DNA of 64,000 nucleotides from Ailanthus altissimus (taxonomy: Eukaryota > Streptophyta > Magnoliopsida > Sapindales > Simaroubaceae). The position numbers and the translations under genes are program-made. The DNA lies in NCBI GenBank assembly GCA_946807835.1, contig OX327702.1, positions 4,216,001 through 4,280,000 on the forward strand, written 5' to 3'. The notes beneath the pieces were generated by a model, which ran no database searches, was not told the DNA's origin, and saw nothing but the letters and a program-made list of their open reading frames with translations. Positions 1,559-47,061 of this stretch are shown here, piece after piece. Position 1 is the first letter of the stretch. The number at the start of each line of letters is the position of its first letter.

Positions 1559-1570
1559 AATCCCCTCCTT
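1559..1570 (-). other. Polypurine tract of Copia A
   Basis: On the minus strand the bases read aaggaggggatt, directly before the 3' LTR. This is the expected primer for plus-strand DNA synthesis. Confidence 0.85.
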
Positions 1571-1627
1571 GATTCAAAATCAACCACAAAGCAACTCGAT
1601 CTCTTATTTTCGCTTCTTTGGTCACCC

Positions 1628-4906: not shown

Positions 4907-4915
4907 GTCTACTTA

Positions 4916-4934
4916 GAACCAAGCTCTGATACCA
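4916..4934 (-). other. Primer binding site (tRNA-Met) of Copia A
   Basis: The minus strand reads tggtatcagagcttggttc, complementary to the 3' end of plant initiator tRNA-Met. It lies 3 bp inside the 5' LTR. Confidence 0.92.
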
Positions 4935-4937
4935 GTT

Positions 4938-13000: not shown

Positions 13001-13206
13001 TGCTTGAAGAATCACTTGAAATGCAAGATGACATTGTCAAGGAATTGCGACCAGCCTTGAGAATCAAAATTCAAAATATCTTGGTGTCAATATTGACGGT
13101 TGGAGTCCTGTGCTCGGCAGAGTTGCCGAGGGACAGAATGCTGATCAAAGATGCCATCAAGGAATTGCAAGAAGCCCAAAAAATGATCCAGGCATTCAGA
13201 TCATAA
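10030..13206 (+). CDS. LRR receptor-like kinase, subgroup XII (EFR/XA21 type), two exons
   Basis: Exon 1 is 10030-12712, the intron 12713-12820 (gt...ag, 108 bp) and exon 2 12821-13206. Splicing restores a GAG codon and gives about 1,022 residues. The order is: hydrophobic signal peptide (about 1-30), LRR N-terminal cap (about 35-85, starting ETDKLALIAFKS), some twenty leucine-rich repeats to about 620, and one membrane helix (about 656-676). A kinase follows with glycine loop GTGGYGFVYKG (719-729), Lys741, HCDLKPSN (845-852), DFG (865-867) and APE completed at the splice junction. The catalytic Asp is preceded by Cys, so this is a non-RD kinase, typical of pattern-recognition receptors. Family knowledge places it at the plasma membrane sensing a microbial ligand; the ligand is unknown. 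The intron position is the conserved one for this subgroup. No lesion is visible, so it looks functional. Confidence 0.95.
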
Positions 13207-13589: not shown

Positions 13590-14733
13590 TGGAGGAAGCA
13601 TCAGACCATCACCTTTTCCTCTTTCAGATAATCATATTCTCTTATAGTTGTGAGTCCCTATAGCTAACAATCTTTACTCTGTAATCTGACTTTACCGCCT
13701 ATGCTCTGCTATATGAACTTCAACCCAAACTCTGATACCAGTTTGTTTAGGATATCAAGCCATGCTATTCAATTTAACACCCTTATGGCATCAACTAAGC
13801 CATGACCTTGATACCTTTTTTATTTTATGCGCAGTGAAAAATCATAACTCACACCATAAGTAAGAACATATAAAATCAACACACCAATAAAGATAAAGAA
13901 AACAAACCAATTAACAAAATACAAGATATACATGGTTCGGCCCAAAATTGTCTACGTCCACGGAGGATCCATGATTCAGCTTCTTATTATTGAAATAGAT
14001 CACTAAGTATCTTCTTACATCATCAATGATCCCACAAGACCCCTTAGTATCTCCCATAGAGACCTCTAAGTATCTACCTTTGATCACTATGACTACCCAA
14101 TACCTCTTAGTATCTCCTCATAAGAGATTTTTACAAGGAACACAAGAATAGCCCGAGCATCTAAGCCAAAAGGATCTATGGTGTTTCTTTTGTTCACTTA
14201 AGAACTAAAAGAAAACACTCCTCAAAGGTTACACCTTAATACACCACGCACTTAGTGCCTACTTAGCTCATCTATTCTCTCTTATGGTTACATCTTAAAA
14301 CCTTAGATACTTGCATTTCTCTTGTGTTTAGAAGAGTTTATATAGTGAATAAAATACCCTTAGAAACCCTAAACCTATTTGGAATAAGAGTTCTTATTTG
14401 TAGAAATCTTAATCTCACTTAAAAAAGTCAATTGAGGCAAAACAGAAAATATCCTAAAGTTGCCATGTGAAGAGTAACTATCCAAATGGTAGCTGATGAA
14501 TAGTACCACCGCGAACAGTACACCCCTGATGAACAGTAACTGCCGTAAACAGTTCCCCGCACAACAATGCTCATTGTGAACAGTGTCACCTCATAAACAG
14601 TATTCATTCTTTTTGCTTCCATTTTGCTCCTCCCTTATACACCCAATGCGTACTTGACTTCATAATAACTCTCTTCTTAGTATTTATCTCAATTCTTGTC
14701 TATACAAAATTGTTGAATCACTAATTTTCAACA
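13590..14733 (-). mobile_element. Truncated LTR element of the G family (LTR plus ~150 bp interior)
   Basis: The LTR spans 13744-14733, minus orientation, and is homologous to the LTRs at 35412-36345 and 37460-38446. Directly left of it (about 13725-13740) the minus strand reads tggtatcagagtttggg, a tRNA-Met primer site. About 150 bp of interior (13590-13725) match the start of the interior of element G (from about 36348), then the homology stops. The other LTR is missing; the receptor kinase gene lies there instead. The LTR contains clustered actgttca/tgaacagt words (14480-14600). An ORF at 14428-14622 is part of the LTR and not a gene. Confidence 0.85.
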
Positions 14734-15040
14734 CAATCAAATACTTAAAAACAAATTTGGTATGATTATTAAAAGGGGACTTGAATTTGACTTGTTGAAT
14801 AATTATGTCAATTTTCTCAATCTAAATTCAGTAAATTCTTAAACAAAGTAGTGTCTTAAATAAATTGAACAAATTTGATTATTCAAATAGTAATGCTTTA
14901 TAAGCGAATTAGAATACTAAAACACAAATTTTACGCGATTATTAAATAGGTGACACAAATTCTACTTTTCTAATAATCTATACTAAATAGGTGACAAAAA
15001 TTCTATGTCTAATAATCTATCATTTTTTAATCTAAATAAA
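14734..15040. other. AT-rich intergenic sequence
   Basis: No gene. A 'taggtgaca.aaattct...taataatctat' unit occurs twice in tandem near 14945-15025. Confidence 0.5.
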
Positions 15041-23988: not shown

Positions 23989-23993
23989 ATCAG

Positions 23994-26711
23994 TGTAGTA
24001 ACCAGTATCCACGACTGGTAAGAATAATTATTTATATATGTATAAATATACGTATTTTATTTGTATGTTGGTGATACTTGATTTATATATTGTTATTAGT
24101 AGTGTTTGTATAGGTTAAGGTGATACTATTAGTATTGGGTTTATTTGTATGACTTTAGATTTGTTTTAGGGACTAAATTGTTATACTTTGAAAGTTTTGG
24201 GGGCAAATTTGTAAATACCAAAAATTAACCACTTAGTATAAAAATACACTTTTAAAAACCCTAATTTACCATTTTTAGGTCGAGCTACCCATTTTAAGAG
24301 AGAGAAGAGAGAAATAGAGGAGAGAGAAAGAGGAGAAGAAGAAGAAAAAGAAGAAGAAATTGGAATTTTGAATTTCAAGAGGTATATCATACGTATTTCT
24401 CAATTTATTGGTATTAATTAAGTTAATTCCTTTAAGTTTTAATTTCTGAAAATATTTATAATTGAGGATTTGTTGTGTATTTCGTAAGATCATATGAGAA
24501 TTGATGATGATCTATAAGATAGTTTGATAAATCATGATGAATTGTAGAATTTCTGCTAGATAACCTCTTGATCTAGGAATTTTATAAATTGTTGTGATTC
24601 GATTATGGTTTTGAATTTTGAGTATATGAAATTAGACATGTTTAGGATCATCTGAGACTTTGAATCGATTCGAAATTCCAGATATTGAATGATTTGTGAA
24701 TTTACCAAACTGACCCTGAAATTCTGGAAATTTCCTATGTAAACAGTATGATACAGTGACGAACAATGTTTGTCCTACTGAATGATCTTCAAAAATTACG
24801 AATTTGTGGAATATGATAATTTTATATGTCTAATATGATATACTCAGAATTAAGAATTTAGATCAATGTTGTTGAAATGTTATGATTTTCTAAAGTATAT
24901 CCGCTCATTACAGTATTTGATTAACAGATTTTTAAAGTTATGAAATAAAATAGTTTTAAAATACTTTTGGCAGTTATTTGGAAGCCAAATATTTATCATG
25001 GACTGAGATATGTGTCAAGAGTAATTATGTGATAGTTTTATAATTTTTGAGTTAGTATATGATTTTATAAAATTGGGAGATTGAATACTGTTCAGTAAGT
25101 ATCTTGATCCTGTCAGGTTTGTAGTTTGAATTCGATGGTGTGTATGGAATGGATTGTGTAGGAATTTTGATATAATATTCATATATAAGAAGTATATATG
25201 AGTCAAGAATGATATATTCTGATTTCGGAGTAATTGGACATCATTTGATGTATTAGAAAGTTTTTTTAAGTGTAAGTGGTCAGAATGACAGGTTTTGAGA
25301 AACCAAATATTTAGATCAAATTTTATGTGATAAATGCATTGTGTATAATTTTGTAAGCTATTTAAAGCATTTTGTGTGAATTGTGAGGCTTATGAAAGGA
25401 TTAATCTCCATTGATAGGTTAAGGAGATTTAAGCCTTGTAGCTGAAAGTGTTAAGAGGTAAGTATACTAGACTTTTTATTGAAATCACAATAAACATAGT
25501 AATTGTTTTGTATGATTTTGTAAATGTGGTTAGGAATATGTTTATGTTATGTTAAAGTATATTTTGATATGAAATGTAAAGATATGTATTTATGAATGTG
25601 AGCATGGACATACATGACATACATGTGTTTTTGAAAGTGAGCTTTCAAAATAAGATATGTTTAACAAAGAAAGCTTTTGAAGTGTAATATGTCCATGAGA
25701 AATATTTTGTGTTTTGAGGGTACTTGAACTCACTGTTAACTTAGTAGGCATTTTATGTGATTTGTGGAGCCTTTATGTGTGGCCTTTCCTTCGGGATTGG
25801 TATATGTTATGTGTTCCGTATGTAGGGAGGATCCTATTGGTACCTAAAGGAAGTGTGAGTCATCACATTCGTGTGGTGGCGTATTGGTACATGTGAGAGG
25901 ACTCACCGATGATCAGGGTGAGGGTTTGGCTTTTACCTTCGGGCATAAGCGTTATATATGTGTGATTTAAAGACCTCACTTGTACTATTCCTCTCATACG
26001 GTATGTCACCTACGAGTGACATTTGGCTCATTATGTGATATGTGATATGTAAGTCCTACTAAGTAGTAGTCGAGTAATGGTATTCCTATTATGTATTTTG
26101 AAAGAATGTGTAAGCGCTTACATGATATGTGATTTGATAAGATTATGATTTTGATTGATCACAGCATATCATACATATGCATTGTGTACATATATGTATT
26201 TGTATTTGATATATGAAAAACTAGTATGCTTACTGAGTTTTATACTCATTATAGTTTATGGTGATTTCAGGTAAATAAGGTACATGTGTGCTTAGCGGAT
26301 TTGGCAAGGCTTCTGCTGTTCCTTGGGTTCTCTAAGTTGTTAGGTTACTAAGTGTTTCATTTGGGGACACGTGGGATAAGATATTTGATTTGTCCCTAGT
26401 GAATAAATACTTATGTATTATTTTATTGTGTGTGGTTGGATTTAGTTTAAGTTTCACCAAGTGTAGTAATGGATTGATTTTAAGTAAGAATTTGCAATGA
26501 ATATATTCTGGGCTTCCGGTAATAAAGTTGCTACTGGTGACGTAGTAGAGTGTTAATCTCTGAGAAAACTCTGCGTATCTCCGGTTTACTAATTGTCCCA
26601 GTCATAATTCAATTACTATAATTCTGAAAGAAATTAAAATGAATGTTTAAGTATTATTGAATGAATGTAAGTGATGTCGTGTGTCAGATCTTTTGGGTCT
26701 GGGGCGTGACA
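23994..26711 (+). repeat. 5' LTR of the LOG-bearing element
   Basis: Starts tgtagtaacc, ends ggggcgtgaca. Differences from the 3' LTR that I saw include the sites near 24215, 24692, 24715, 25033, 25366 and 26696. A purine-rich stretch of about 70 bp (24295-24360) resembles the leader of other LTRs in the window. ORFs within it (for example 24181-24493 and 25714-25896) occur identically in the 3' LTR and are not genes. Confidence 0.97.
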
Positions 26712-26719
26712 GCTTTTAT

Positions 26720-26733
26720 TGGTATCAGAGCTA
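26720..26733 (+). other. Primer binding site (tRNA-Met) of the LOG-bearing element
   Basis: tggtatcagagcta, eight bases after the LTR end; complementary to plant initiator tRNA-Met. Confidence 0.92.
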
Positions 26734-27096
26734 AGATATGATTCTGTAGACTTTTAAGTGTCGAGTCAAGGGAACCGAGCAGATGCCAAATCCTTAGGAT
26801 TGTATTTGTAGCTTTGTTGTGTAAAAGTTTGACATATTCCTTAAATTTTGTATGATTTTGTGAAGATGACACAGTATCCAAGAGCTGCTAAGATTGTTGT
26901 TGTTGTGGATAATGGTACCTTGTGGATCTTAATGTTACCATTTAGATTTTCTTTTACGTTATGACTAATATGCTTAGTAAGAGTGATGTTGAATATCTTA
27001 TAATGATAATTTGCATGTGATAGAGCAAATTGAGATAATTTTCTCAATGACAAAATATAGAGAAGTAGAGTATTGAAGACATCAATTGAAACAACT
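26734..27096. other. Leader region between primer site and LOG gene
   Basis: No domain is seen. A short frame beginning atgacacag at 26866 is where gag would start, but it shows no gag features and soon ends. Confidence 0.4.
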
Positions 27097-27102
27097 TTTA
27101 TT
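27097..27102 (-). terminator. Possible polyadenylation signal of the LOG gene
   Basis: aataaa on the minus strand, about 110 bp past the LOG stop codon. Confidence 0.5.
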
Positions 27103-27210
27103 GAAAAGGAAAACAACAACACAACAACAATAGCAGCAACAAAAATACAATAGAGGCTACGGAGTGAGATTTAAGTCTATTTTGCGCTTCTTCTGACTGT
27201 CATGAGTAGA

Positions 27211-27810
27211 CTAATCTAACTGATGCAATGTTGGATTAGACAGAGGAATAAAAGACTGCAATTGATCAATCAGTTGATCAACAGTTGGAGCTGAAATAAG
27301 AATCCGTCGTGCTAGAAGTGGGATGAATTGTGTTCCCGCTGCATAGTCAAGAAAAGATATCAACCCGTCGTAAAAACCATTAACATTTAACAAACCAATG
27401 GGTTTTTGGTGGATTTGTAATTGTGCCCATGAGACAATTTGAAAAATTTCCTCCAAGGTCCCGAAACCTCCTGGTAGAGCTATGAAAGCATCCGCATGCC
27501 TAAGCATTTGAGCCATTCGCTCATGCATAGATGAGACTTGTAACTCATCCCCAATTGTTTTTCCTACAACATTTTCAATAGCTAGAGGTTTTGGAATGAT
27601 ACCCAAAACTCGACTACCTTTATTGTGTGCAGCTTTTGCCACAGACCCCATTAACCCTCGGTTACCTCCTCCATATACTAAATGTGTATTTCGCTCAGCT
27701 AATACCTTACCAAGATTTTCTGCAACTTTTGTAAACTCTTCAGTATTCCCAGGGTTGGATCCACAAAAGACACAAATTTTTGTGAATCGACGAGCTGAGG
27801 TTTCCTCCAT
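27211..27810 (-). CDS. LOG-like: Cytokinin riboside 5'-monophosphate phosphoribohydrolase (LOG type), intronless, inside an LTR retrotransposon
   Basis: LOG enzymes cut cytokinin ribotides to active free cytokinin and ribose 5-phosphate in the cytosol. This copy has 199 residues from ATG at 27810 (context aacaATGG); an upstream GTG at 27822 in the same frame is less likely. It shows CVFCGS (13-18), YGGGNRGLMG (46-55), MHERM (95-99, holding Arg98) and the family signature PGGFGTLEE (113-121, ending in Glu121). Arg98 and Glu121 are the catalytic pair as I recall it. Usual plant LOGs have 'RK' where this has 'RM', and 'GGGS' where this has 'GGGN'. Length is close to the family's, and there is no stop or frameshift. 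Plant LOG genes are normally split by several introns; this one has none, so it derives from an RNA copy. It lies antisense to its host element. Confidence 0.93.
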   Translation of the reverse strand: MEETSARRFTKICVFCGSNPGNTEEFTKVAENLGKVLAERNTHLVYGGGNRGLMGSVAKAAHNKGSRVLGIIPKPLAIENVVGKTIGDELQVSSMHERMAQMLRHADAFIALPGGFGTLEEIFQIVSWAQLQIHQKPIGLLNVNGFYDGLISFLDYAAGTQFIPLLARRILISAPTVDQLIDQLQSFIPLSNPTLHQLD

Positions 27811-27870
27811 TGTTATGCTCACCCTACTCTTTGAATATTTTTGAGTTTGTATAAGGATGCTATAATAATG

Positions 27871-27878
27871 TATTTATA
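27871..27878 (-). promoter_or_regulatory. TATA box of the LOG gene
   Basis: The minus strand reads ctctataaataca, a classical plant TATA box, about 60 bp upstream of the LOG start codon. It suggests a promoter independent of the LTR. Confidence 0.65.
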
Positions 27879-28401
27879 GAGAAACAAATTGATAATAGCT
27901 GTGGAGCATATGTGTAAGGATGTTCAAGTATATATTTTTCTCGATTCTTGTGAGGTAAAAAAAAAAAAGAGAATGAGTTTTACTTTATCATTTTATAAGG
28001 GATAATAGGTCGCAAAATCTTGAATAAATATATGTTGATATGTAAGTGTGATAAAAATTGTGTCGGAAGCGTGATGAGTTAGGTAAGATAATTAAGAAAA
28101 GTCAATAAAGGCCTATTTTATGGATTTAGGGACTTTGTCGTTTTGGCACTAATGGCCGACAATACATCTATGACTTGAAGACTTTTTGAGCGAACAATTG
28201 GACTTTGGACATGAGGCTAAATTAACTTTATTAATTTCAAGGATTTTTGTGATCTTAACATTGATTTTTGGATAGATTAAAAGCAGATATGAAGAAAGAT
28301 AAAGCACACTTGACATAAAGATAAAGCAGTAGTCAGTCTCTCTTTGATGTGATAGAGCAACACGGATTTAGTTTTTGTGAAAATAGAAACAGCAATGTAG
28401 G
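27879..28401. other. Spacer between the two antisense genes
   Basis: Would serve as LOG promoter and as 3' untranslated region of the upstream antisense ORF (aataaa on the minus strand at 28227-28232). No coding features. Confidence 0.5.
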
Positions 28402-29562
28402 TCAAAATGAGTCTCCTTGGTCGCTTTCATCTGTGTCATATCCGTGAGAGAGGAACTTATGGAATTGTTGTTCCCATGCATTGAATGAGGGCTCTGGCTG
28501 AGTGGAATGTGGGTCTACCATATCTTGATCTTCTCCAGGTGAACTGGTCTGGATGAGGGATGTGCTGGCTTCCTCTTGGATTTGGGTATCGGTTGGATAA
28601 GGTTGGGAGTCTTGAAAGAGAGATAAGTCAAGATTGGGTTGGTGTTGGTCAGGTTCTGTCGGGACAATTGGCTGAGATTGAGTAGGTTCTGTCGGGACAG
28701 GTGGCTGAGGCAATTGGTGAAGGTTATCGATTTCTTGTCTGTATCTGACATAATAAGTCATGTTTGGGATATGGTGATGGTGGGTAGAGTAATCTGTATT
28801 TCTATGATGAGAAAGATGATGTTTTTGTCTTTTTCGGGATTTGTGTAGATTGGCAGAATTCAATTCTTCTGCAAAGTCATCTTCAACCTGTTCCCAAGGT
28901 GCAGCATCTTTTGGGGAGATCCAAACAGACGGAGGAATTATCTGATTTTCCTGAGCAAGAATTCTTTCAAGTTCTCTCTTTTGTTGGATTACTTCTTCAG
29001 GCTAGAGCTTAATTGATCCCTTTAGTGAAAGGGTAAAGGTGAGGTAATCCTTGACAGTGGGGTAATAATGGATTTCATAATCTGAAATAATCATACCCTT
29101 TCGTTGGAGAAGTAAAACAGACCAAAGATGTTGTCTAGGGACTGCAGCATTTGTGTTGTTTGCAATCATGTGTTGAAATTTAGTTATCCACCATGTCTTT
29201 GGGTAAAACCATTGGAGAAAAATCAGGGCTGGATGATCTTTATCACATTTTTCTAATTTTTGGACGGTTCTAAGTAATGGGAATTCCATGGCGATTGTAT
29301 ACAGATCCAATAGGTACCATAACAAGTAAAGGACAGATTTGGACCATTGGGAAAATGGGAAAAAATAGTGCAGGTGAAAGAAAGGGTATTCCAAGTTGAA
29401 CGAAGGGCCACCAAGAACTGTGAGGCCGTGTTCTTGGACTGCCAAGATGGCGTAGTGTCTGATGAATTCTTTGGCACGGGAATAGAGTGTTCTGGTTCTG
29501 ATTAGGTCTGGAAATTGAGGTGGAGTAAAAGGAACAGGAGGAGTTATGATAATGGGATTCAT
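28402..29562 (-). CDS. Unrecognised antisense ORF of the retrotransposon, interrupted by one TAG
   Basis: From ATG at 29562 a frame of 387 codons runs to 28402 with a single in-frame TAG (29002-29004) after residue 186. The first part is rich in aromatic residues (for example HLHYFF, WYLLDLYT, WFYPKTWW), which suggests a folded domain. After the TAG comes a charged stretch, then a His-rich segment (HHLSHH, THHHH). A twofold repeat around PTEPTQSQPIVPTEPDQ and an acidic tail (DTDESDQGDSF) follow. I do not recognise the family. It is transcribed in the same direction as LOG and upstream of it. The TAG could be a recent lesion or a site of read-through; if it stops translation, the product is 186 residues. 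Antisense extra ORFs are known from several Gypsy lineages. Confidence 0.6.
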
Positions 29563-29624
29563 TATGAAGATGGTAAGAGGGTTGGTTTTCTTTATTGCTA
29601 GAAAAGTGATTATGAGATTTAGGC

Positions 29625-29632
29625 TATTTATA
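29625..29632 (-). promoter_or_regulatory. TATA box of the antisense ORF
   Basis: The minus strand reads ctctataaatagcc, a near-ideal plant TATA box, about 65 bp before the ATG at 29562. Confidence 0.65.
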
Positions 29633-29639
29633 GAGTTTT

Positions 29640-30441
29640 GTGAAAGAAAAGCAATAATCGTTTTGTCCTTTTCTTTTACGTGGATGACGTTAAAGGAATA
29701 GTTGAAAAACCATATTTGCCATCGCAGTAATTGTGCTAGTAGAATCTTTTCTGTTTGAAACTGAGCATATTAGAAGAAAAAAAAAAGCAGACATGTCAAT
29801 CTCAATGAGAAAATGATGTCCAATAAGGTGGACTATTTTTTTTAAGAGTTAAAGTAAGAGATATAATGTTAAGATCTATAGTTTAAGAATCAGTTGAACT
29901 AAAGGTCTTTTTATTAAAGTTGATTTTTGATCGTTTAAGATAATGCCTTCAATATTCTGATTTGAATGACAACTTAGTTGCGTAGAAATGCTACATTTTT
30001 TTTAATGATATCAAGGTAGTGAATGATATTATGACGTATGAGTATATGTTGAAGGGATTAAAATTTTCAGAGGAGTTAAGAATTTTATTTAAGAGATTAG
30101 TATGGGTATTCTACATCTATATTATTCTTTAATGAATAAAATGTGAAGTGTATAGATGCACATTAAATATTGAACGAATAGGAGAAAAGAATAAAAATAT
30201 GTGTGTATAATTTTATAAGTCCATAATGTGTGTCATGTGTTTATTTTATGGATGAATGTTTCGTACTTCTCTCACAGACTAAGTTATGAGCAAATCTTAT
30301 ATACCAAAAAGATTGCTTTGTAAATGTTTTATGAATAAACCATACTGTTGAAAAGACAACTTGGGAATGAGAATAAGAAATGAGATTTAAGTATCCTCAT
30401 ATGTTTGCTCAAGTCATGAATTTCGAGGACGAAATTCTTAT
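29640..30441. other. Non-coding interior before the polypurine tract
   Basis: AT-rich; contains degenerate sequence in which I see no pol domain. The last 40 bp (atttcgaggacgaaattctt) resemble the sequence that follows integrase in Tekay-type elements. Confidence 0.45.
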
Positions 30442-30454
30442 AAGGAGGGGAGAA
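30442..30454 (+). other. Polypurine tract of the LOG-bearing element
   Basis: aaggaggggagaa, ending one base before the 3' LTR. Confidence 0.88.
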
Positions 30455-30455
30455 T

Positions 30456-33173
30456 TGTAGTAACCAGTATCCACGACTGGTAAGAATAATTATTTATATA
30501 TGTATAAATATACGTATTTTATTTGTATGTTGGTGATACTTGATTTATATATTGTTATTAGTAGTGTTTGTATAGGTTAAGGTGATACTATTAGTATTGG
30601 GTTTATTTGTATGACTTTAGATTTGTTTTAGGGACTAAATTGTTATACTTTGAAAGTTTTGGGGGCAAATTTGTAAATACCAAATATTAACCACTTAGTA
30701 TAAAAATACACTTTTAAAAACCCTAATTTACCATTTTTAGGTCGAGCTACCCATTTTAAGAGAGAGAAGAGAGAAATAGAGGAGAGAGAAAGAGGAGAAG
30801 AAGAAGAAAAAGAAGAAGAAATTGGAATTTTGAATTTCAAGAGGTATATCATACGTATTTCTCAATTTATTGGTATTAATTAAGTTAATTCCTTTAAGTT
30901 TTAATTTCTGAAAATATTTATAATTGAGGATTTGTTGTGTATTTCGTAAGATCATATGAGAATTGATGATGATCTATAAGATAGTTTGATAAATCATGAT
31001 GAATTGTAGAATTTCTGCTAGATAACCTCTTGATCTAGGAATTTTATAAATTGTTGTGATTCGATTATGGTTTTGAATTTTGAGTATATGAAATTAGACA
31101 TGTTTAGGATCATCTGAGACTTTGAATCGATTCGAAATTCCAGATATTGAATGTTTTGTGAATTTACCAAACTGACCATGAAATTCTGGAAATTTCCTAT
31201 GTAAACAGTATGATACAGTGACGAACAATGTTTGTCCTACTGAATGATCTTCAAAAATTACGAATTTGTGGAATATGATAATTTTATATGTCTAATATGA
31301 TATACTCAGAATTAAGAATTTAGATCAATGTTGTTGAAATGTTATGATTTTCTAAAGTATATCCGCTCATTACAGTATTTGATTAACAGATTTTTAAAGT
31401 TATGAAATAAAATAGTTTTAAAATACTTTTGGCAGTTATTTGGAAGCCAAATATTTATCATGGACTGAGATATGTGTCAAGAGTAATTATGTGGTAGTTT
31501 TATAATTTTTGAGTTAGTATATGATTTTATAAAATTGGGAGATTGAATACTGTTCAGTAAGTATCTTGATCCTGTCAGGTTTGTAGTTTGAATTCGATGG
31601 TGTGTATGGAATGGATTGTGTAGGAATTTTGATATAATATTCATATATAAGAAGTATATATGAGTCAAGAATGATATATTCTGATTTCGGAGTAATTGGA
31701 CATCATTTGATGTATTAGAAAGTTTTTTTAAGTGTAAGTGGTCAGAATGACAGGTTTTGAGAAACCAAATATTTAGATCAAATTTTATGTGATAAATGCA
31801 TTGTGTATAATTTTGTAAGCTATTTAAAGTATTTTGTGTGAATTGTGAGGCTTATGAAAGGATTAATCTCCATTGATAGGTTAAGGAGATTTAAGCCTTG
31901 TAGCTGAAAGTGTTAAGAGGTAAGTATACTAGACTTTTTATTGAAATCACAATAAACATAGTAATTGTTTTGTATGATTTTGTAAATGTGGTTAGGAATA
32001 TGTTTATGTTATGTTAAAGTATATTTTGATATGAAATGTAAAGATATGTATTTATGAATGTGAGCATGGACATACATGACATACATGTGTTTTTGAAAGT
32101 GAGCTTTCAAAATAAGATATGTTTAACAAAGAAAGCTTTTGAAGTGTAATATGTCCATGAGAAATATTTTGTGTTTTGAGGGTACTTGAACTCACTGTTA
32201 ACTTAGTAGGCATTTTATGTGATTTGTGGAGCCTTTATGTGTGGCCTTTCCTTCGGGATTGGTATATGTTATGTGTTCCGTATGTAGGGAGGATCCTATT
32301 GGTACCTAAAGGAAGTGTGAGTCATCACATTCGTGTGGTGGCGTATTGGTACATGTGAGAGGACTCACCGATGATCAGGGTGAGGGTTTGGCTTTTACCT
32401 TCGGGCATAAGCGTTATATATGTGTGATTTAAAGACCTCACTTGTACTATTCCTCTCATACGGTATGTCACCTACGAGTGACATTTGGCTCATTATGTGA
32501 TATGTGATATGTAAGTCCTACTAAGTAGTAGTCGAGTAATGGTATTCCTATTATGTATTTTGAAAGAATGTGTAAGCGCTTACATGATATGTGATTTGAT
32601 AAGATTATGATTTTGATTGATCACAGCATATCATACATATGCATTGTGTACATATATGTATTTGTATTTGATATATGAAAAACTAGTATGCTTACTGAGT
32701 TTTATACTCATTATAGTTTATGGTGATTTCAGGTAAATAAGGTACATGTGTGCTTAGCGGATTTGGCAAGGCTTCTGCTGTTCCTTGGGTTCTCTAAGTT
32801 GTTAGGTTACTAAGTGTTTCATTTGGGGACACGTGGGATAAGATATTTGATTTGTCCCTAGTGAATAAATACTTATGTATTATTTTATTGTGTGTGGTTG
32901 GATTTAGTTTAAGTTTCACCAAGTGTAGTAATGGATTGATTTTAAGTAAGAATTTGCAATGAATATATTCTGGGCTTCCGGTAATAAAGTTGCTACTGGT
33001 GACGTAGTAGAGTGTTAATCTCTGAGAAAACTCTGCGTATCTCCGGTTTACTAATTGTCCCAGTCATAATTCAATTACTATAATTCTGAAAGAAATTAAA
33101 ATGAATGTTTAAGTATTATTGAATGAATGTAAGTGATGTCGTGTGTCAGATCTTTTGAGTCTGGGGCGTGACA
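30456..33173 (+). repeat. 3' LTR of the LOG-bearing element
   Basis: Same length as the 5' LTR, 2,718 bp, with about six substitutions and no length difference noticed by eye. Followed directly by the atcag duplication. Confidence 0.97.
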
Positions 33174-33312
33174 ATCAGTAAGTAGAAAGCTAACTAATTT
33201 TAATGTATTTTCAAATAACCTAAGCATCAGCAAAATTCATAAAATCTGACGCTAAATCTATCATGAAAGAACACACAATGGAGTGACCAGAACATGGAGA
33301 GTATAGACTTGC

Positions 33313-35411: not shown

Positions 35412-36345
35412 TGTTGAAACTTAGTGATTCAATAATTTTATATGGGTAAAAATTGATATGAATACTAAAAAAAGAGTTATTATGAAGTTAAGTACGCATT
35501 GGGTATATAAGGGAGAAGTAAAACGAAAAGTAAAAAGAATGAGTACTGTTCATACAACACACTGTTCACGGCGAGTATTGTTGCCCGTGGGGTACTGTTC
35601 ACAGCAGTACTGTTCGCCGGTAACTGTTTGCGCGGTTACTATCTACATGGCTACTTTAGGGTATTTCTTATTTTGGCTCAATTGACTATTGGATTAGGAT
35701 TCTTATTCCAACTAGGTTTAAGGTTTTTAAAGGTATTTTATTCACTATATAAACCCTTTTAAACACAAAAAAAAGATAAGCATCTAAGATTTTAAGATGT
35801 AACTATAAGAGAGAATAGAGGAGTTAGGTAGGCACCAAGTGCATGGTATACTAGGGCGTAACCTTTGGGGAGTATTTTCTTTTAGTTCTTAAGTGAACGA
35901 AAGAAACAACTAGATCCATTTGGCTTAGATGCTCGGGCTATTCTCGTATTCCTTGTAAAATTCTCTTATGAAATGATATTAAGAGGTCTTAGAGAGTTAT
36001 GGTGATTAAGGGCAGATACTTAAAGGTCTCTATGAGAGATACTAAGAGGTCTTGTGAGATCATTGATGATGTAAGAAGATAGTTAGTGATCTATATCAAT
36101 AATAAGAAGTTGGATCATGGATCCTCTGTGGACGTAGGTAATTTTGGGTCAAATTATGTATATCTTGTGTCTTATTGATTGATTTGTTTTCTTTATCTTT
36201 ATTGGTATGTTGATCTTATATGTTCTTACTTATGGTGTGAGTTATGATTTTCCGCTGCACATAGAGTAAAAGAGGTATCAAGGTCGTGGCTTAGTTGATG
36301 CCATAAGGATATCAAATTGAAGTGCATAGCTTGATATCCGTAACA
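35412..36345 (+). repeat. 5' LTR of element G
   Basis: tgttgaaac...ccgtaaca. Contains a cluster of actgttca words (35545-35640). The ORF at 35458-35685 lies within it and is not a gene. Confidence 0.88.
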
Positions 36346-37459
36346 AATTGGTTTCAAAGCTCAAGTTAAAGTCTAGATTGCCGAGCATAGGTAGCAATGT
36401 TATATTGCAGAGCAAAGATTGTCAACCACGAGGACTCACAAATATAAGGGAAAAATAATAGGGAATATGATTATCTGAAAGAGGAAAAGATGATAACCTT
36501 ACGGGGGAGTTTTTTGTGGTAAGGATCACTCTTGAAGAAAAAGAAAAGAAAACTGTTAAGAAGATGACGTTATCTAGTAACTAGTTAGAAGAATCATTCA
36601 GATTGAACACAAAATAAATATGGTAAAAGAAGAACAATCAAGGTTAAAGGGAAGATCTAAAAGGTGTCTAGGGCACTCAAAGGGATAGTCTTAAATATAG
36701 ACAAAGATAGAAGAAAGGTGAATTTGCAAGTCTATTGGATGACTAGGTAAAGACCTTGATTGCATAAGAGCTTCTGAAGGAATAAGTGTCTGATGGATGA
36801 ACTATTTTTTGGATCTAGGGTAGTATTTTCATATGAGTCATGGAGAATCGTTATTTACCAATTGGAGAAATAAGGCTTATAATAAGTTACAGGGAATTGA
36901 TAGAATAAGAATGAGACTACATAGTAAAAAAGACAAGGGAGGGACTAGGTATGAGATTTCATTCATCATCTCATGAAGACCCAGTGGACTTGGGATTGTT
37001 AGATCGAAATAGGGAGATTCATGGAAGACAGAAGGAAGGAATACTAAATAGGAAGTAAAAGGATCAGGGAGTGATAAGCATAGAGGGAGGCTATGTTCTT
37101 GAAAAAAAGTGCTTTGAATGGGATCAACATAAGGTTGTTGATTTGAAACAGACCATAAAGTAGCTTTTGAATTATATTACTTTATGGCAGAGATCGAAAA
37201 AAAATATGTGGAAAGAGTAGTAATTGCGAGAATGTGTTTTCACCATTAAAGGATTGTGGTCATTGTGTCTTTGAGATATGGAAAATCACAACATTGAACT
37301 ACTCTAAACATCAGCATTCAAGAATCTTTAGAGACCGTAGTTGCAAGAGCCTTAGTTAAGTCTGGGACTTAACTTATAGACAATGCTAGTAAACATTGGT
37401 CAAGGAGAAGTGACGATGATTAGTTTCATGGAGAGAGATTTTAAATCAAGGAGGGGATT

Positions 37460-38446
37460 TGTTAGAAATTAGTGATTCAACAATCTTGTATAGAAAAGAA
37501 TTGAGATGAATACCAAGAAGAGAGTTATTATGAAGCTAAGTACGCATTGGGTGTACAAGGGAGAAGCAAACCAGAAAGCAAAAAGAATGAGTACTGTTCA
37601 TGTGACACACTGTTCACAACGAGCATTATTGCGCGCGGCGAATGGTACTGTTCATGAAAGTGTTCATTGGGTACTGTTTACATCAGTATTGTTCATCAGT
37701 AACTGTTTGTGCAGTTACTATTCAAGCGACTACTTTAGAGTATTTTTTGTTTTGGCTCAATTGACTTCTTTTAGTAGAATTAGGACTCCTATAAGTAAAG
37801 ACTCTTATTCCAACTAGGTTTAGGATTTTTAAGGGTGTTTTATTCGCTATATAAACCCTTCTAAACACAAGAGAAAGACAAATATCTAAGGTTTCATGAT
37901 GTAACCATAAAAGAGAATATATGGGCTAGGTAGGCACCAAGTGCGTGGTGTACTAGGGTGTAACCTTTGGGGAGTGTTTTATTTTGGTTCTTAAGTGAAC
38001 AAAAAAAATACCATAAATCCTTTTAGCTTAGATGATTGGGCTGTTGTTATATTCCTTGTAAAAATCACTTATGAGAAGATATTAAGAGGTTTTAGGGAGT
38101 CATGGTGATTAAGGGTAGATACTTAGAGGTCTCTATGGGAGATACTAAGGGGTCTTGTAGGATCATTGATGATGTAAAAAGATACTTAGTGATTTATATC
38201 AATAATAAGAAGCTAGATCATGGATCCTCTATGGACGTAGGCAATTTTGGGCTGAACCATGTATATCTTGTGTCTTGTATATTAGTTTATTTTTTTATCT
38301 TTATTGTGTGTTGATCTTATATGTTCTTACTTATAGTATGAGTTATGATTTTTCGCTACGCATAGAATAAAAAGAATATCAAGGTTGTTGTTTGGTTGAT
38401 GCTATAAAGGTGTCAAATTAAAGTGCATGCCTTGATATCCGCAACA
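37460..38446 (+). repeat. 3' LTR of element G
   Basis: tgttagaaa...ccgcaaca, about 50 bp longer than the 5' LTR and clearly diverged from it, so the insertion is old. ORFs at 37506-37817 and 38102-38314 belong to the LTR. Confidence 0.88.
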
Positions 38447-38989
38447 CACTATATACCCCATTCCTCTGAGTGGCACTCCTTATAATGCTGATGGCTTACA
38501 GCTTATTCGGGTGAAAGGGTCAATAGGTGCTTTCTGCACAGAACAAAGAGGCAGAATTCAAATTCAGAAATCAAGTTTGATTGCTATACTCACTCATTTC
38601 TATATTAAGAGACTAAAATACTTGAATCACAGGGAAAAATCAACGACCAATATATCTAGAAAATTAAGCGAATTACCCTTTCATGAGAGGCCTCTTCCCT
38701 AACATAGGACCATAACCGTATGCCAAGTCGAACCTACATATTATATTCGGAAACAAATCAAAAAATCGACTGCATTGAGCAAACAAATCTCTTTTAATAA
38801 AGGAAAGGGCATGAATAAAAAGAAGTAGAACTGATTGTCTCTAGGATCAACCAAAGAAGTAATTTACCATTTTAATGGCTTCCACAAATGTAACACTGAA
38901 TTCTTTGAGTATATTAGCATGATTGTTTAATCACCTTCTCCAAGCCTACTCGGGCATGGCAGCACTATCAAACTCAAATTGCAGAGGAG

Positions 38990-40683: not shown

Positions 40684-41164
40684 CACTATTAAAAAAAAAC
40701 TTTATTGATACAAATTTTGTAATTAAAATATATCATTATTAAAAATTTATGATAAAATCTATCACAAATTTTATATTATCAATAATTTATGATAGATTTT
40801 ATCACAAACAAAAAAATTATATTTACAATCACAAATTTGTGATACATTTTATCACTAATCCGTGATACAATGTATCAGAAAATAAATAGCATATTAATGA
40901 TAGATATGTTTTCATATTATTTAATAAAAACTTATTAAATTTGATGTGAAAATTTAAAACGATGTCATTTTTTAATTAAATTTTTTATCACAAATTTGTA
41001 ATACATTCTATCACAAATTAACGATATATTGTAAATAGCATATGTTAATGATATATATGTTTTCAAATTATTCAATAAAAATTTTATTAAATCTAATGTG
41101 GAAATTAAAAACAATTAAATGAATTTTCTATCACAAGTTTGTATTTTCTTATTTATGTTATAAA

Positions 41165-42060
41165 TGGTCCAAAACCAAATTTAATTTCAATTACGTTAAA
41201 TATTATAATTTCTATTCTAATTTTAATTTTAATTATGTTAAATATTATAATTTTGATTCTAATTTTAATTTTAATTAAATTAAATGTTATAATTTTGATT
41301 TCAATTCAAATTTCAATTACATTAAATGTTATAATTTTAAATTCATATTTAATTTCAATTACTTTAAATATTATAATTTTGATCCCAATTTTAATTTCAA
41401 TTATGTTAAATATAATAATTTCAATTCTAATTTTAATTTTAATTACATTAAAAGTTATAATTTCAAATTCGATTTTAATTTTATTACGTTAAATATTATA
41501 ATTTCACATACGATTTTAATTTTGATTATGTTAAATGTTATAATCCCAATTGCAATTTTAATTTCAATTTCAATGTTATAATTTCAAATCCAATTTTATT
41601 TTTAATTATGTTAAATTTTATAAATCTAAATCTATATTCAATTTTAATTACATTAAATATTATAATTTCAATTCTAATTTAATTTCAATATGTTAAAAGT
41701 ATAATTCTAATTTCAATTTGAATTTCAATTATGTTCAAAGTTATAATTCTAAATCCGGCTTCAATTTTAATTTAAGTCAAATGTTATAATTTCAAATCTA
41801 ATTTCAATTTCAATTATGTTAAATGTTATAATTCTGATTCCAATCTAAATTTCAATTACGTTAAAAAGTTATAATTTTAAATTCGATTTCAATTGCAATT
41901 TCATTAAATTTTATAATTTTAATTTTAATTACGTTAAATCTTATAATTTCGAATCTAATTTTAATTTTAATTACATTAAATATTATAATTTTAATTCTAA
42001 TTTAATTTTAATTATGTTAAATATTATAATTTCAATTCTAATTTTAATTTTAATTATCTT
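41165..42060. repeat. 42-bp minisatellite, about 20 units
   Basis: Equivalent points at 41191, 41233, 41275 and 41317 show a constant 42-bp period (for example ttacgttaaatattataatt). Units differ by substitutions. Because 42 is divisible by three, long frames stay open (41139-41492 reads as a 14-residue Ile/Leu-rich periodic peptide), but this is a by-product, not a gene. Confidence 0.9.
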
Positions 42061-42580
42061 AACGATATTGTTTATGGGATAAACAATATTTCAAATCCCC
42101 CAAAAAATAACGTTTTGGGGTTAGAAATAAAGAAGCCCCAAAACACTATCGTTTTGAGTTTATAAGACAACAAAATCGAGATTTGTTAAGCTCATACAGC
42201 AAAGTCTCCTTCTATTTGATTTTTATTTGGATACTAGTTTAGGTTTCTGAGATGATGCAATTCAAATACCAATTTTGTCATCATTTGGTAGAATATTATG
42301 GTTGTGAGATGGGCTTGTATCTGTGCCAACTTGCAAGGAAATGTAATTAAAATTTTGAAAAATCATTATAAGTGTTTACATTAGGAAAGCAAACGACTAG
42401 ATAAACATTATTGTAAAATAGTTGCATTTGTCAAGTAAGTGGATTTTTAATGCTCATGTGAATTGAAATATTTTGAGGTATTTGTACATAAATGACTTTT
42501 GTGTGGATTGTTTATACATGTTCTGCAAAGTGCTTTATTTTACCTCAAATTCTATTTTGAGACTTTATTTTATTTGATGA
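42061..42580. other. Interior of insertion E with small inverted repeats
   Basis: cccaaaaaataacgttttgggg and agccccaaaacactatcg (about 42100-42160) form short inverted repeats around 'cgttttgg'. No gene. Confidence 0.4.
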
Positions 42581-42585
42581 TTTGA

Positions 42586-43289
42586 TGTGGGAGTATTAAA
42601 TACATAGCGGAATACATAAGATCATATAAACAAAGCAATGAAGTAGATAATTCAATTAGTCAAGTAAAAACAACAAGCTAATCAAGAGTTAAGTAATGTG
42701 CAATAGAGAAAATGCAAAAATATACAATATCAAGACACAAAATATGCAGTTTAGCAATGTGTTTACGTCAACGGTGGATCAAGGACCTAAGTCTCTCTTC
42801 TTTGATGCTTGATTACAAGAAAATAGATCAAGGAATGATACAAATCAAGTTTTGAGCCTAGAGTTTGTTGTACAGTATTTTTCAAGTGTATTTTCGAGTT
42901 CTCTCTCAACTCTAGGCATAATGGGGTATTTATATGAAGTTCAAAATACTCAAGCCTTCAAAATACTCAAATTTGAATTTGGGGGGGGTCAATGAACAAT
43001 ACCATGAATAGTGCATAAACAGTACTAGCCCTCGACACTGAAAATTAGCGCCGTGGCACTATACATTATGTCATCCAGCAATGTAGCGCTGGAATCCAAT
43101 ATCGTAGTGCTCAAGCCTAGAAATAGGCTTCTTATTTCCTGTACTGTCCCCTGCCTTTTATACATTTTTTCATTTGTTTTTAACCCTTTTCGAGCTTGTT
43201 TTTAGCTCCAACTTAATTCTGAATTGTTCCCGAATTTCTCTCAAACATAACCATCACATTAAACATGATTTTGTATCACAAAATCCACA
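42586..43289 (-). repeat. 3' LTR of Copia C
   Basis: tgtgggagtatta...aaatccaca. Contains an agcgc-rich block (43040-43110) and a homopolymer of eight or more G near 42980. Diverged from its partner. Confidence 0.9.
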
Positions 43290-43369
43290 AATTCCATTCA
43301 AAATCACTCTAACAACTCCAAGAGAGCAATCAAGGATTCATTATATCCACATCACAATCTTAATTGTAA

Positions 43370-46350
43370 ATTATGATTCCAATTAAGTCCATATCCAACC
43401 TGAACTTAACTGCGGGCATCAGCTTAGTCAACATATCAGTAAAATTCTCCAACGTCAGAATTTTACATAGATTAATAATGTCACTTTGTACAGTTTCTTG
43501 AATGAAATACATCATAACATCAATGTATTTCAATCCTTCATAAAACACCTGATTTTTGCTTAGATGTATGACACTTTAGCTATCATAATGCCCAAAAGTA
43601 TTCACTTTATTTATAGCAAAAAGTTTAGCACATATACCTTTCAATCATATAGCCTCCTTGATTGATTCTCCTAAAGCTATATACTCGACTTTGGTAATTG
43701 ACAGTGCTATAACATGTCGTAATACTAATTTTTAGCATACGTTACATCCAAATATCGTGAAGATATACCTAGATAACGACCTTTTATTGTCCAGATCACT
43801 TGCATTATCGATATCCACATAACCCTTTACCATTTTACCACTTGAGCCAACCCTTTAAATAGCAAACCATAATATGACATCCCCTTTAGATACCTAAGTA
43901 TCCATTTGACGGCCATCAAATACTCATTTTCAAGATTAGACATGTATCTACTTACAACACTCACCGTTTATGCTATATTCGGCCTTGTGCAAACTATAAC
44001 ATACATGATAAAATTCCACAACACTAGCATACGATACCTTAAGCATTTGTAGTTTGTTTTCTTCAACTTGTGGTGAATGAGATGCCAACAGTTTGAAATA
44101 CATTGCCAATGGAGTTGACATAGTTTTGGCATCCCTTATTCCAAACCTATCAAGAACTTTAAGTATATACCGTTGTTGAGACAAGAAAATAACACCACTA
44201 CCCATTTACTATATCCATATCCAAATTTCTTTTAGCTAACCCCAAATCTTTCATTTCAAACTTATCACCCAACTGATGTTTTAGCTTATGTATCTCTTCT
44301 ATATTCTTATATATAATTAACATATCATTAACATATAGAAGAAGATATATACACTTATTATTTTTCAATGCTTTGAAGTACACGTATTTGTTATCCTTGC
44401 TCATTGTAAAGATACAATGAAACATAAAATCATCAAATCTCATATACCATTATCTCAAAGATTGCTTCTGCTTATATAAAGACTTCTATAGTTAACAAGC
44501 ATAATCTTTTTTGTTGATTCTTCAAAATCTTTCGATTGTGCCATGTATATTTCTTCTTCAAGCTCACCATGAAGAAAATATATCTTTACATCTATTTGTT
44601 TAAGATGTAAATTCAGATTTATACACATGGATAATAAAATACAAATGTTTTACAACAGTAGAAAGGATTTCATAGAATCAATCCCTTCTTTTTGTGTGAA
44701 GCCTTGTGCAAAAAGCTTAGCCTTAAACTTTATAGACTAAACACCCAAAACTCCCTCTTTAACCTTGTAAACTTATTTGTATCCAACTAGCATCTTGTTC
44801 TTTGGTTTCACTACCAATTTTCAGGTCTGATTCTTTACAAGAGAATTGAACTCCTCTTCTATAGGTTACTGTCATTTAACACAAGTTACACTCTTTATGG
44901 CTTCATCATATGACTTCAATTCATCATATTCTATAGTGTAAGCAGTGTTAAACGCATAGGTTATCAAATCTGCATGTGTATACCTGCTCGGTTATCGAAC
45001 AACTCTTCTTTGTTTGTCTCTAGCTAGTTCGTACTCTTCAAGTTTAGTTTCAGGAGTACTACACTACAGTGATGCAGTTTCGAAGGAAATTTTAGGTTCT
45101 TGTTCTTCATGTACTTTATCATTAAAGTACTGAACCATGTGAGTGTTAGGTTTCAAATCATGTACCATTTCATAATGTTCAGGTTCAAATTCAAAAACTA
45201 AAGTTGGCACATTTTTTGGTGTCTTCAAAACTAAATTCGGATTGGTTTCTAATAATGTAGATTCATTGAATGTCACATCCATACTAATGACACTCTTGTA
45301 TGGATTAAGATCAGTACACCATACCTCGTATCCATTAACACCTTCTGGATATCCAATGAATATCCCTTTCAAGGCTCTTGGTTCTAGTTTGCCTTACTTG
45401 ATGTGTACAAATACGGGGTATTCAAATACTCTCAGGTGATCATATTTTTTAGTACTCCCAAACCATTTCTGTTTTGGTGTCATAAAGGCTATAGCTGAGG
45501 AAGGACTTCGGTTTATTATGTAAGCCATTGTTATTACAGCATTCCCTCAAAATACCTTAAACAATCTCGCATTTATTAGCAAGCACCTTACCTTTTTCAA
45601 GTAATGTTCAATTCATTCTTTCTACAAGTTCATTTTGTTGTGGTGTGTACTATATCGTTTTATGCCTTGTAATTCTATGCTTAGTACAAAACTTATCAAA
45701 CTCAGTGTTACAAAACTCAAGACCATTATTCATCCTAAATCTTTTGATTTTCTTACCTGTTTGATTCTCTATAAGTGCTTTCCATTTCTGGAATGTTTCA
45801 AGCACCTGTTCTTTGCTCTTCAACACATAAATCCATAACTTCTTTAAATAATCATCAATGAATGACAGAAAATACTGTGCACCACCATGAGTGACAGCTT
45901 GTACAGGTCTCCAAAGGTTATAATGTATATAATCTAGAGTGCCATTGATGCTGTGTTCACCTGTGTTGAACTTAACTCTATGAGCTTTACCAAGTATACA
46001 ATGTTCACAAAACTCTATTGGCTAGATCTTATCCTTGCTAAATATACCTTGATCATACAACTCTTTAAGACCTCTCTCACCTAAGTGCCTTAACCTTAAA
46101 TGTTACAACTTGGTTTATATATTCTCATTATCAATAGAGAAAGATGCAGAATCAATGATAGCCTCTCCATTCAACATATATAACTTGTGTTTACGCTCAC
46201 CTTTCATTACAACCATTAAATCCTTAATTACTTTCAATGTACCATTCTCACCCTTAAATGTGCAATTAGATTGATCAAGCATGCCTAAAGAAATTAAATG
46301 TCTTTTGAGTTCAGGTACATGCCTCACATGTAACAAAAAAATAAACTTAG
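43370..46350 (-). pseudogene. pol remnant of Copia C
   Basis: Read on the minus strand. A protease C-terminal region (near 46330-46200, HVPELKRHLISLG) is followed by integrase (about 46100-45000, with a zinc-binding start and the C-terminal GIFIGYPEGVNGYEVW). Reverse transcriptase (44443-43948, YVNDML in place of YVDDM, then FLSQQRYILKVLDRFG) and RNase H (to about 43370, DMLTKLMP) come next. Several stops and frameshifts separate the pieces. The Asp-to-Asn change in the reverse transcriptase YVDD motif alone would abolish activity. Confidence 0.88.
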
Positions 46351-46379
46351 ACACCCAATAACAAGCTGTGATACTTATT

Positions 46380-47061
46380 TGTATGGGTATTAAACATGCA
46401 GCAAAATATGTAAGATCGTACAAACAAAGCAATGAAGTAGATAATTCAACTAGCCAAGCAAGAACAATAAGCTAATCAAGAGCTAAGTAATATACAGTAG
46501 AAAAAATGCAAAAATATACAATACTAAAACACAAAATACGTGGTTCAGCAATGTGCTTATACCCACGATGGATCAAGGACCCAAGTCTCTCTTATTTGAT
46601 GCTTGATTATAAGGAAATTGATCAAGAAATGATACAAATAAAGTTTTGAGCTCTATAGTTTGTTGTACAGTGTTTCTCAAGTGTATTTTCAAGTTCTCTC
46701 TCAACCCTAAGCAAAATAGGGTATTTATATGAAGTCTAAAATACCAAAACCTTCAACAAAAAAAACTCAAATTTTAAATTTTGGTGTAAATGAACAGTAC
46801 CATAAACAGCGCCAGCTTGCAACGTTGAAAATTAACGTTGTGGTGCTATACATTCCACCAGTTAGTGCTAAAGCTGTAGCACTCAAGCTTAGAAATAGGC
46901 TTCTTATTTTTTGTGCTATCATTTGCCTTCTGAATACTGTTCCATTGGTTTTCGACTCATTTCGAGCTTGTTTTCGACTCTAACTTGATTTTAAATTATT
47001 TTTGAATTTATCCCAAATATAAACATCATATTAAACATGATTTTGGATAATAAACTCCACA
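46380..47061 (-). repeat. 5' LTR of Copia C
   Basis: tgtatgggtatta...aactccaca; partner of 42586-43289, with the tttga duplication immediately after it. Confidence 0.9.

What the first reader, a model, noticed from the sequence alone, without database searches (positions are those of the whole stretch)
23994..33173. LTR retrotransposon carrying an intact, intronless LOG cytokinin-activating gene
Seen: two 2,718-bp LTRs, a perfect atcag duplication, primer site and purine tract enclose a complete 199-codon LOG-type ORF on the antisense strand, with the catalytic Arg98 and the PGGxGTxxE signature ending in Glu121. No gag-pol is present. Known: plant LOG genes normally have several introns and release active cytokinin. 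Inference: an LOG mRNA copy was captured by the element, which then spreads a hormone-activating enzyme with each insertion. I know of no described retrotransposon with such cargo. It could influence growth of the tissue where it transposes.
Basis: partly seen in the sequence, partly recalled or inferred. Interest (0 to 1): 0.92.

Follow-up and report, generated by a model that had tools for sequence, protein, structure and literature searches.

The report
Retrotransposon family carrying plant hormone-enzyme-like genes
A plant genome holds hundreds of copies of a jumping DNA element that carries, in reverse, a gene resembling the enzyme that switches on the growth hormone cytokinin; selection seems to have kept the gene's protein, but its binding pocket is altered and this particular copy is cut short, so whether it still makes hormone is open.

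Summary
In detail: 2,718-bp LTRs (6 mismatches), ATCAG duplication, primer site, purine tract, antisense LOG-type ORF. It is one copy of a large family. A 32-bp LOG active-site pattern (at most 1 mismatch) has 776 places in the 939-Mb source genome; 30 of 30 fetched LOG loci are collinear with the window element; 8 of 9 tested copies have perfect, different target duplications. Of 29 other copies picked by a noncoding probe, 29 carry LOG and 22 keep a 217-codon frame. The window copy stops 18 codons early. LOG (pN/pS 0.42) and a second antisense ORF (0.33) show purifying selection. A conserved basic, LxLxL-type tail is unexplained. New variant of a known kind.

The parts
23989..23993 (.). target-site duplication ATCAG, left
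23994..26711 (+). 5' LTR, 2718 bp, TG..CA
26720..26731 (+). primer-binding site TGGTATCAGAGC (tRNA-Met type, recalled)
27097..27102 (-). AATAAA behind LOG
   Evidence: also in 30 of 30 fetched LOG loci
27157..27210 (-). stretch that in relatives encodes the last codons of LOG (basic + LxLxL-type tail); lies behind a stop codon in this copy
27211..27810 (-). LOG-type ORF, 199 codons here (217 in relatives); Arg98, Met99, PGGFGTLEE 113-121
27872..27878 (-). TATAAAT, 68 bases before the LOG ATG
   Evidence: within 100 bp upstream in 30 of 30 loci
28402..29562 (-). second antisense ORF (ORF2), one in-frame stop (29002-29004) in this copy; relative P0122 of 397 aa, 89% identical; no Pfam family above cut-off
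29627..29633 (-). CTATAAA, 71 bases before the ORF2 ATG (looked at in the window only)
29638..29739 (-). remnant resembling the C-terminal end of a caulimovirid RNase H
   Evidence: only PDB hit 8r0s 'Enzymatic polyprotein' (a caulimovirus RT-RNase H by recall), E 0.0025 here, E 2e-4 in copy L107
30442..30455 (+). polypurine tract AAGGAGGGGAGAAT
30456..33173 (+). 3' LTR, 2718 bp
33174..33178 (.). target-site duplication ATCAG, right

Best explanation
This is one recent insertion of a high-copy, non-autonomous Ty3/gypsy-type LTR retrotransposon. Its gag-pol is replaced by an antisense two-gene module, ORF2 and a LOG-type gene, each with a TATA-like signal in front. Shown: repeated transposition with the cargo in place; a purifying-selection signal on both cargo proteins; two further intronless, multicopy LOG types in the same genome, one of which shares sequence behind LOG. 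Inferred: the LOG was taken over from another LOG-bearing retroelement (Athila-like by a motif I recall), not from a host mRNA; the family is moved in trans by an unseen autonomous partner; and the LOG-type protein is an accessory protein of retroelements that acts on the host cell. The most likely activity is a LOG-fold nucleotide phosphoribohydrolase with an altered base pocket. I put a role in freeing cytokinin in dividing cells and a nuclear, non-cytokinin role at about equal odds. The window copy itself, which lacks the tail and has a broken ORF2, is probably a decaying copy.
For: LTR search of the own genome: 40 of 7,670 candidates scored, 45 matches over many contigs. LOG search: 150 of 6,212 candidates scored, all 150 full length at 98-100%, 149 without a stop, 9 pairs (counted by eye) 6.5-6.7 kb apart as in LTR-internal-LTR arrays. 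776 places of a 32-bp LOG pattern at most 1 mismatch, control 0. 30 of 30 LOG loci collinear with ORF2 on one side and 5' UTR and LTR end on the other. 8 of 9 perfect, different TSDs, the ninth in an array. LOG intact in 22 of 29 other copies picked without regard to LOG. pN/pS of LOG 0.42 (0.27-0.66) over 14 pairs, of ORF2 0.33 (0.25-0.50) over 11 pairs, against 0.71-0.95 in a simple neutral simulation on LOG. 3' flank of LOG aligns over about 130 nt with L137/L139, score 95 against a maximum of 37 in 300 shuffles. LTR-end divergence 8 in 3,851 bases over 9 copies.
Against: The autonomous partner was not found (the primer-junction search did not complete). Copies were chosen by similarity to the window or to P0001, so they are the younger part of the family. 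Among public relatives recent copies evolve almost neutrally at conserved columns: row-unique changes 0.91 of even expectation, nearest pairs 0.73 against 0.05 in a Massilia control. ORF2 is open over 380 codons in only 11 of 30 loci. How selection could act on a trans-acting cargo of a non-autonomous element is unexplained. The Athila assignment of the other LOG types rests on a recalled motif and 840 bp behind one locus of each. No activity, localisation or expression data.
Confidence: 0.75

Rival explanations
1. Neutral hitch-hiker: LOG and ORF2 do nothing for the element and are intact only because the family is young.
For: Low LTR divergence; the window copy and 7 of 29 others are broken in LOG, and ORF2 is open over 380 codons in only 11 of 30 loci; recent changes among public relatives are nearly neutral.
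Against: pN/pS 0.42 and 0.33 with bootstrap intervals below the simulated neutral range 0.71-0.95; LOG less diverged (0.0140) than the noncoding DNA before it (0.0205) and behind it (0.058) in the same pairs; between-lineage ratio 0.17 at conserved columns, from pairs that are not independent.
Confidence: 0.15
2. One reading: an LOG mRNA was captured by this element, which now spreads an active cytokinin-activating enzyme with each insertion.
For: Intronless ORF; catalytic Arg and Glu kept in 106 of 114 plant rows; stable passenger.
Against: TATA-like and AATAAA signals travel with the gene; other intronless LOG types exist in the same genome; 3' flank shared with one of them; pocket lysine replaced, where in CgLOG alanine at the AMP-site residues, Ser19 apart, almost abolished activity (PMC4979012, section 6 read).
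Confidence: 0.2
3. The antisense module was picked up from an endogenous pararetrovirus (caulimovirid): RNase H end, ORF2 and LOG lie on one strand in that order, so ORF2 and perhaps LOG are genes of a virus-like element.
For: The stretch directly before ORF2 matches only chain 8r0s (caulimovirus RT-RNase H by recall) among 177,635 PDB sequences, E 0.0025 and 2e-4 in copy L107. Recombination between caulimovirids and Ty3/gypsy elements has been proposed (PMC10377300, passages seen).
Against: 34-residue match only; no Pfam family and no PDB hit for the neighbouring frame; no ORF2, LOG or remnant relatives in viral contigs; LOG's 3' flank fits another retroelement-like locus. The order may be pieced together from two sources.
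Confidence: 0.2
4. Artefact: a host LOG gene misassembled into, or hit by, an LTR element.
For: None beyond the single window.
Against: 30 of 30 collinear loci and different TSDs.
Confidence: 0.01

Closest known systems
YgdH (LOG) domain in Citrus sinensis, C. clementina and Populus trichocarpa LTR-retrotransposon consensuses (PMC9289625, section 12 read; it cites Steinbauerova 2011, not held; from recall that paper reports LOGL4-like extra ORFs in two Athila-like elements)
   Same: A LOG-family protein carried as cargo by plant LTR retrotransposons.
   Different: Those consensuses were found by their reverse transcriptase, so they carry pol; here the element has no gag-pol match, LOG is antisense with its own TATA-like signal and sits beside ORF2. 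The orientation of LOG in those elements was not seen.
AlkB-type m6A demethylase in Phalaenopsis Ty3/gypsy elements (PMC9289625, abstract and passages seen)
   Same: A host-type enzyme fixed as an extra ORF in an LTR family.
   Different: Large (25 kb) Tat-type elements with gag and pol and a different enzyme; activity shown in vitro there, not here.
Plant LONELY GUY enzymes, AtLOG3 (PDB 2a33) and AtLOG8 (1ydh)
   Same: LOG domain, PGGxGTxxE motif, catalytic Arg and Glu.
   Different: This family lost the pocket lysine, is intronless and multicopy, and its relatives have a basic LxLxL-type tail (the tails of AtLOG3 and AtLOG8 were not in the alignments seen).
Gene-transducing plant LTR elements such as Bs1 (named in PMC13317346, passages seen)
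   Same: Host-derived coding sequence inside an LTR element.
   Different: Bs1 carries gene fragments (title of a cited paper); here a whole ORF with a selection signal in hundreds of copies.

Membership tests
LTR retrotransposon | paired LTRs with TG..CA, PBS, PPT and 5-bp TSD | tested here: met
   TSDs of other copies
LTR retrotransposon | multiple independent insertions of the same structure | tested here: met
autonomous LTR retrotransposon | gag and pol domains | tested here: not met
   no such Pfam match in 14 distinct internal pieces; not all of the 31 ORFs were given
Tekay/Del chromovirus lineage | RT/INT phylogeny and chromodomain | not testable with these tools
   no pol found in the element; tRNA-Met-type PBS agrees but is common (39% of plant elements, PMC6317226 passage)
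LOG cytokinin phosphoribohydrolase | LOG/TIGR00730 domain and PGGxGTxxE motif | tested here: met
   motif complete in 96 of 114 plant rows
LOG cytokinin phosphoribohydrolase | catalytic Arg and Glu | tested here: met
   R98 and E121 in the window; both kept in 106 of 114 plant rows
LOG cytokinin phosphoribohydrolase | adenine/prenyl-pocket Lys (Lys100 of CgLOG) | tested here: not met
   Met99 in 29 of 29 frame-aligned family copies, window included; Met/Ile/Leu in 104 of 114 plant rows, Lys in 13 of 13 outside sequences
LOG cytokinin phosphoribohydrolase | NCBIfam equivalog NF058542 cut-off (300 bits) | tested here: not met
   124.5 bits; the model is made for prokaryotes, so the yardstick for plant proteins is unsure
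LOG cytokinin phosphoribohydrolase | activity on cytokinin nucleotides | not testable with these tools
   needs an enzyme assay
LOG-bearing LTR retrotransposons of Citrus and Populus | LOG/YgdH domain inside an LTR element | tested here: met
LOG-bearing LTR retrotransposons of Citrus and Populus | element identified by its own reverse transcriptase | tested here: not met
   no RT match here
caulimovirid-derived element | recognisable caulimovirid pol | tested here: inconclusive
   34-residue RNase H-end match only; no Pfam match

The most novel reading that the evidence does not exclude
Plant retroelements have turned LOG into a protein of their own. In several plant orders the retroelement-type LOG group keeps the catalytic pair, mostly replaces the adenine-pocket lysine by a hydrophobic residue (104 of 114 rows), and carries a conserved C-terminal tail, a basic stretch followed by LxLxL (LxLxL in 83 of 89 full-length rows), which resembles a nuclear signal plus a TOPLESS-recruiting EAR motif (motif names recalled). 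It would be a nuclear accessory protein that tunes host transcription or silencing, or converts a different nucleotide, in the element's favour, passed between unrelated retroelement families.
Probability: 0.3. Interest if true: 0.9.

Novelty: new variant of a known kind. Interest (0 to 1): 0.68.

Why it matters
If the cargo protein works, hundreds of mobile copies of a hormone-type enzyme sit under selection in one plant genome, with two further intronless LOG types beside them; a seed plant has a median of 12 annotated LOG genes (PMC11305333, passages seen). That would make a non-autonomous retrotransposon more than a silent parasite and give a direct test of what host function retroelements gain from cargo. 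It also warns that LOG gene counts in annotated plant genomes may be swollen by retroelement copies.

Tried and rejected
Rejected: misassembly or a single chance insertion; capture of an mRNA directly by this element. Viral relatives: viral-contig scans gave none; phage records hold only distant LOGs, 22 records, all under 60% identity. Genome contigs gave 45 loci, by title bacterial, some used as outgroup and control. ORF2: a first protein search with its 186-aa piece found nothing, the second one relative; no Pfam match above cut-off and no PDB match; a useless AlphaFold model (mean pLDDT 38.8), so no fold search was made. The PF00646 hit is in another frame and below cut-off. The 1,235-place count (3 mismatches) was set aside for the copy number because at 3 mismatches the pattern also fits the L137 sequence shown; the 1-mismatch count is 776. 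Rows dropped: 7 of 120 proteins (double-domain, truncated or fused) before the tree and column counts; L127 (frameshifted); 5 of 27 copies; 3 of 30 loci had no recognisable ORF2 start. The tree is the quick one; the careful search did not finish.

Not answered: counts of the two other LOG types and of LTR-primer junctions. Host LOG genes with introns were not reached: the 150 scored hits to AtLOG3 are all full-length single-exon loci, 16 of them with one stop (counted by eye).
Full report
What is there. The element at 23994-33173 is as described: two 2,718-bp LTRs with 6 mismatches and no gaps, TG..CA ends, ATCAG on both sides, TGGTATCAGAGC at 26720 and a purine tract before the 3' LTR. The LTR divergence of 0.22% gives about 0.09 to 0.44 million years at assumed rates of 1.3e-8 to 2.5e-9 (rates chosen by me). 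The LOG-type ORF (27211-27810, minus) matches PF03641 and TIGR00730 and its best PDB relative is 2a33, At2g37210, named AtLOG3 in PMC4979012. It is longer than the longest ORF of all 500 shuffles.

The window copy is not fully intact. Relatives read 18 codons further, ending in a tail such as KKRKIDLNLTP; here a stop comes first. The domain match itself, residues 11-186, lies before that stop.

Copies in the source genome. The own genome (939,062,666 bases, 37 contigs; organism not named) was reached. A protein search with the closest public relative P0001 scored 150 of 6,212 candidates; all 150 are full length at 98-100% identity, 149 without a stop, and 9 pairs lie 6.5-6.7 kb apart, as expected of LTR-internal-LTR-internal-LTR arrays (pairs counted by eye). 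The 30 loci fetched from the head of that list are all collinear with the window element from ORF2 through LOG to the 5' UTR and LTR end (three of them lack about 1.8-2.5 kb of the window's LTR), with TATAAAT within 100 bp before LOG and AATAAA behind it in 30 of 30, and an exact primer site in 25 of 30. Of 9 copies whose ends were fetched, 8 have perfect 5-bp duplications, all different; the ninth lies in an array. Of six further LTR loci examined, four are solo LTRs with their own duplications. A 32-bp pattern of the LOG active site has 776 places with at most one mismatch and 0 in the reversed control; at three mismatches it has 1,235, which can also take in the L137 type.

Is the cargo maintained? 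To avoid choosing copies by their LOG I used the noncoding DNA between ORF2 and LOG as probe (1,269 candidates, 40 scored). All 29 other copies fetched carry LOG; 22 have the full 217-codon frame. Over 14 independent pairs from 29 frame-aligned copies (window included, one frameshifted copy left out), pN/pS is 0.42 (bootstrap 0.27-0.66), and differences per site are 0.0140 in LOG, 0.0205 before it and 0.058 behind it. For the first 186 codons of ORF2, 11 pairs from 22 of 27 copies give 0.33 (0.25-0.50). A simple neutral simulation on LOG gives 0.71-0.95. So both proteins show purifying selection, although these are the younger copies and many are decaying: ORF2 is open over 380 codons in 11 of 30 loci.

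Relatives elsewhere. After 7 rows were dropped, 114 plant rows (window included) form one group apart from AtLOG3/AtLOG8 and 11 bacterial LOGs in a quick tree (SH-aLRT 97), with species-wise radiations. Nearest pairs in this group differ almost as often at columns conserved in outside LOGs as elsewhere (88 of 461 differences against 120.5 expected, p 2e-4; Massilia control 2 of 142 against 37.1), while lineage majority sequences differ little there (ratio 0.17, pairs not independent). That is what one expects of amplified copies around constrained source lineages. Gene structure and genomic context could not be seen for these proteins.

Origin. With AtLOG3 as query, the 150 scored places in the same genome are full-length, single-exon LOG loci, most in two classes by open-frame length (250 and 253 codons, against mostly 238 in the window family), 16 with one stop. 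One locus of each class was read: L137 is 95% identical to P0003 and 74% to the window, L138 99% to P0077 and 63% to the window. Both end in the same kind of tail. Both continue into a shared region with the motif CATT(A/G)AGGACAATG..GGGGGGAGGATAG, which I recall from Athila elements; no LTR or pol was seen there. About 130 nt behind LOG in the window align with L137/L139 (score 95 against a maximum of 37 in 300 shuffles); the match to L138/L140 is weaker (42 against 32). The simplest reading is that LOG moved from one retroelement lineage into another. On the other side, the stretch before ORF2 resembles the C-terminal end of PDB 8r0s, a caulimovirus RT-RNase H by recall (E 0.0025 in the window; 2e-4 in copy L107), so part of the module may be of pararetroviral descent.

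What the protein may do. Catalytic Arg98 and Glu121 are kept in 106 of 114 plant rows and the whole PGGxGTxxE motif in 96, but residue 99, Lys in 13 of 13 outside sequences, is Met, Ile or Leu in 104 of 114; ten rows, six of them Xanthoceras, keep Lys. In CgLOG the equivalent Lys100 lines the adenine and prenyl pockets, and alanine at the AMP-site residues, Ser19 apart, almost abolished activity (PMC4979012, section 6 read); the effect of Met, Ile or Leu is not known. The tail contains LxLxL in 83 of 89 full-length rows (85 of 114 in all), against none in 14-residue windows of the rest of the same full-length proteins. Cytokinin activation is therefore possible but not to be assumed.

What is known. 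LOG (YgdH) domains in LTR-retrotransposon consensuses of Citrus and Populus are in print (PMC9289625, section 12 read, citing Steinbauerova 2011, which is not held). Searches of the open library (lists capped at 10-20 rows) showed no paper, among the titles and abstract starts seen, on a non-autonomous LTR element with antisense LOG, on selection on such cargo, or on the altered pocket and tail. That is no proof of absence, since most subscription papers are not held.

Noticed in passing
G000 (source genome), e.g. L137/L139 and L138/L140: Two further intronless, multicopy LOG types besides the window's; 150 of 150 scored AtLOG3 hits are full-length single-exon loci, two pairs about 10.8 kb apart.
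   Followed up: partly
L048, L049, L052, L053: Solo LTRs of the same family with their own 5-bp duplications.
   Followed up: yes
L056, L058, L075: LTR size variants: the match jumps over about 1.8-2.5 kb of the window's LTR.
   Followed up: no
window 843-5643 and 42593-47061: Two Ty1/copia-type elements about 70% alike in their inner part; the first on the minus strand with gag, integrase and RT pieces and a Met-type primer site at 4923; the second judged by DNA similarity only.
   Followed up: no
window 10030-13206: LRR receptor kinase gene, kinase part split between two frames, perhaps by an intron.
   Followed up: no
window 35412-38450 and 13637-14738: About 1-kb repeats 80-84% alike, two in the same orientation with a primer-site-like match (2 mismatches) at 36349 directly behind the first: looks like a small LTR element, plus a third copy inverted.
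   Followed up: no
window 41155-42062: Tandem array of short degenerate repeats.
   Followed up: no
L107 94-300 and the stretch before ORF2 in other copies: Caulimovirid-like RNase H end, better kept in some copies than in the window.
   Followed up: partly
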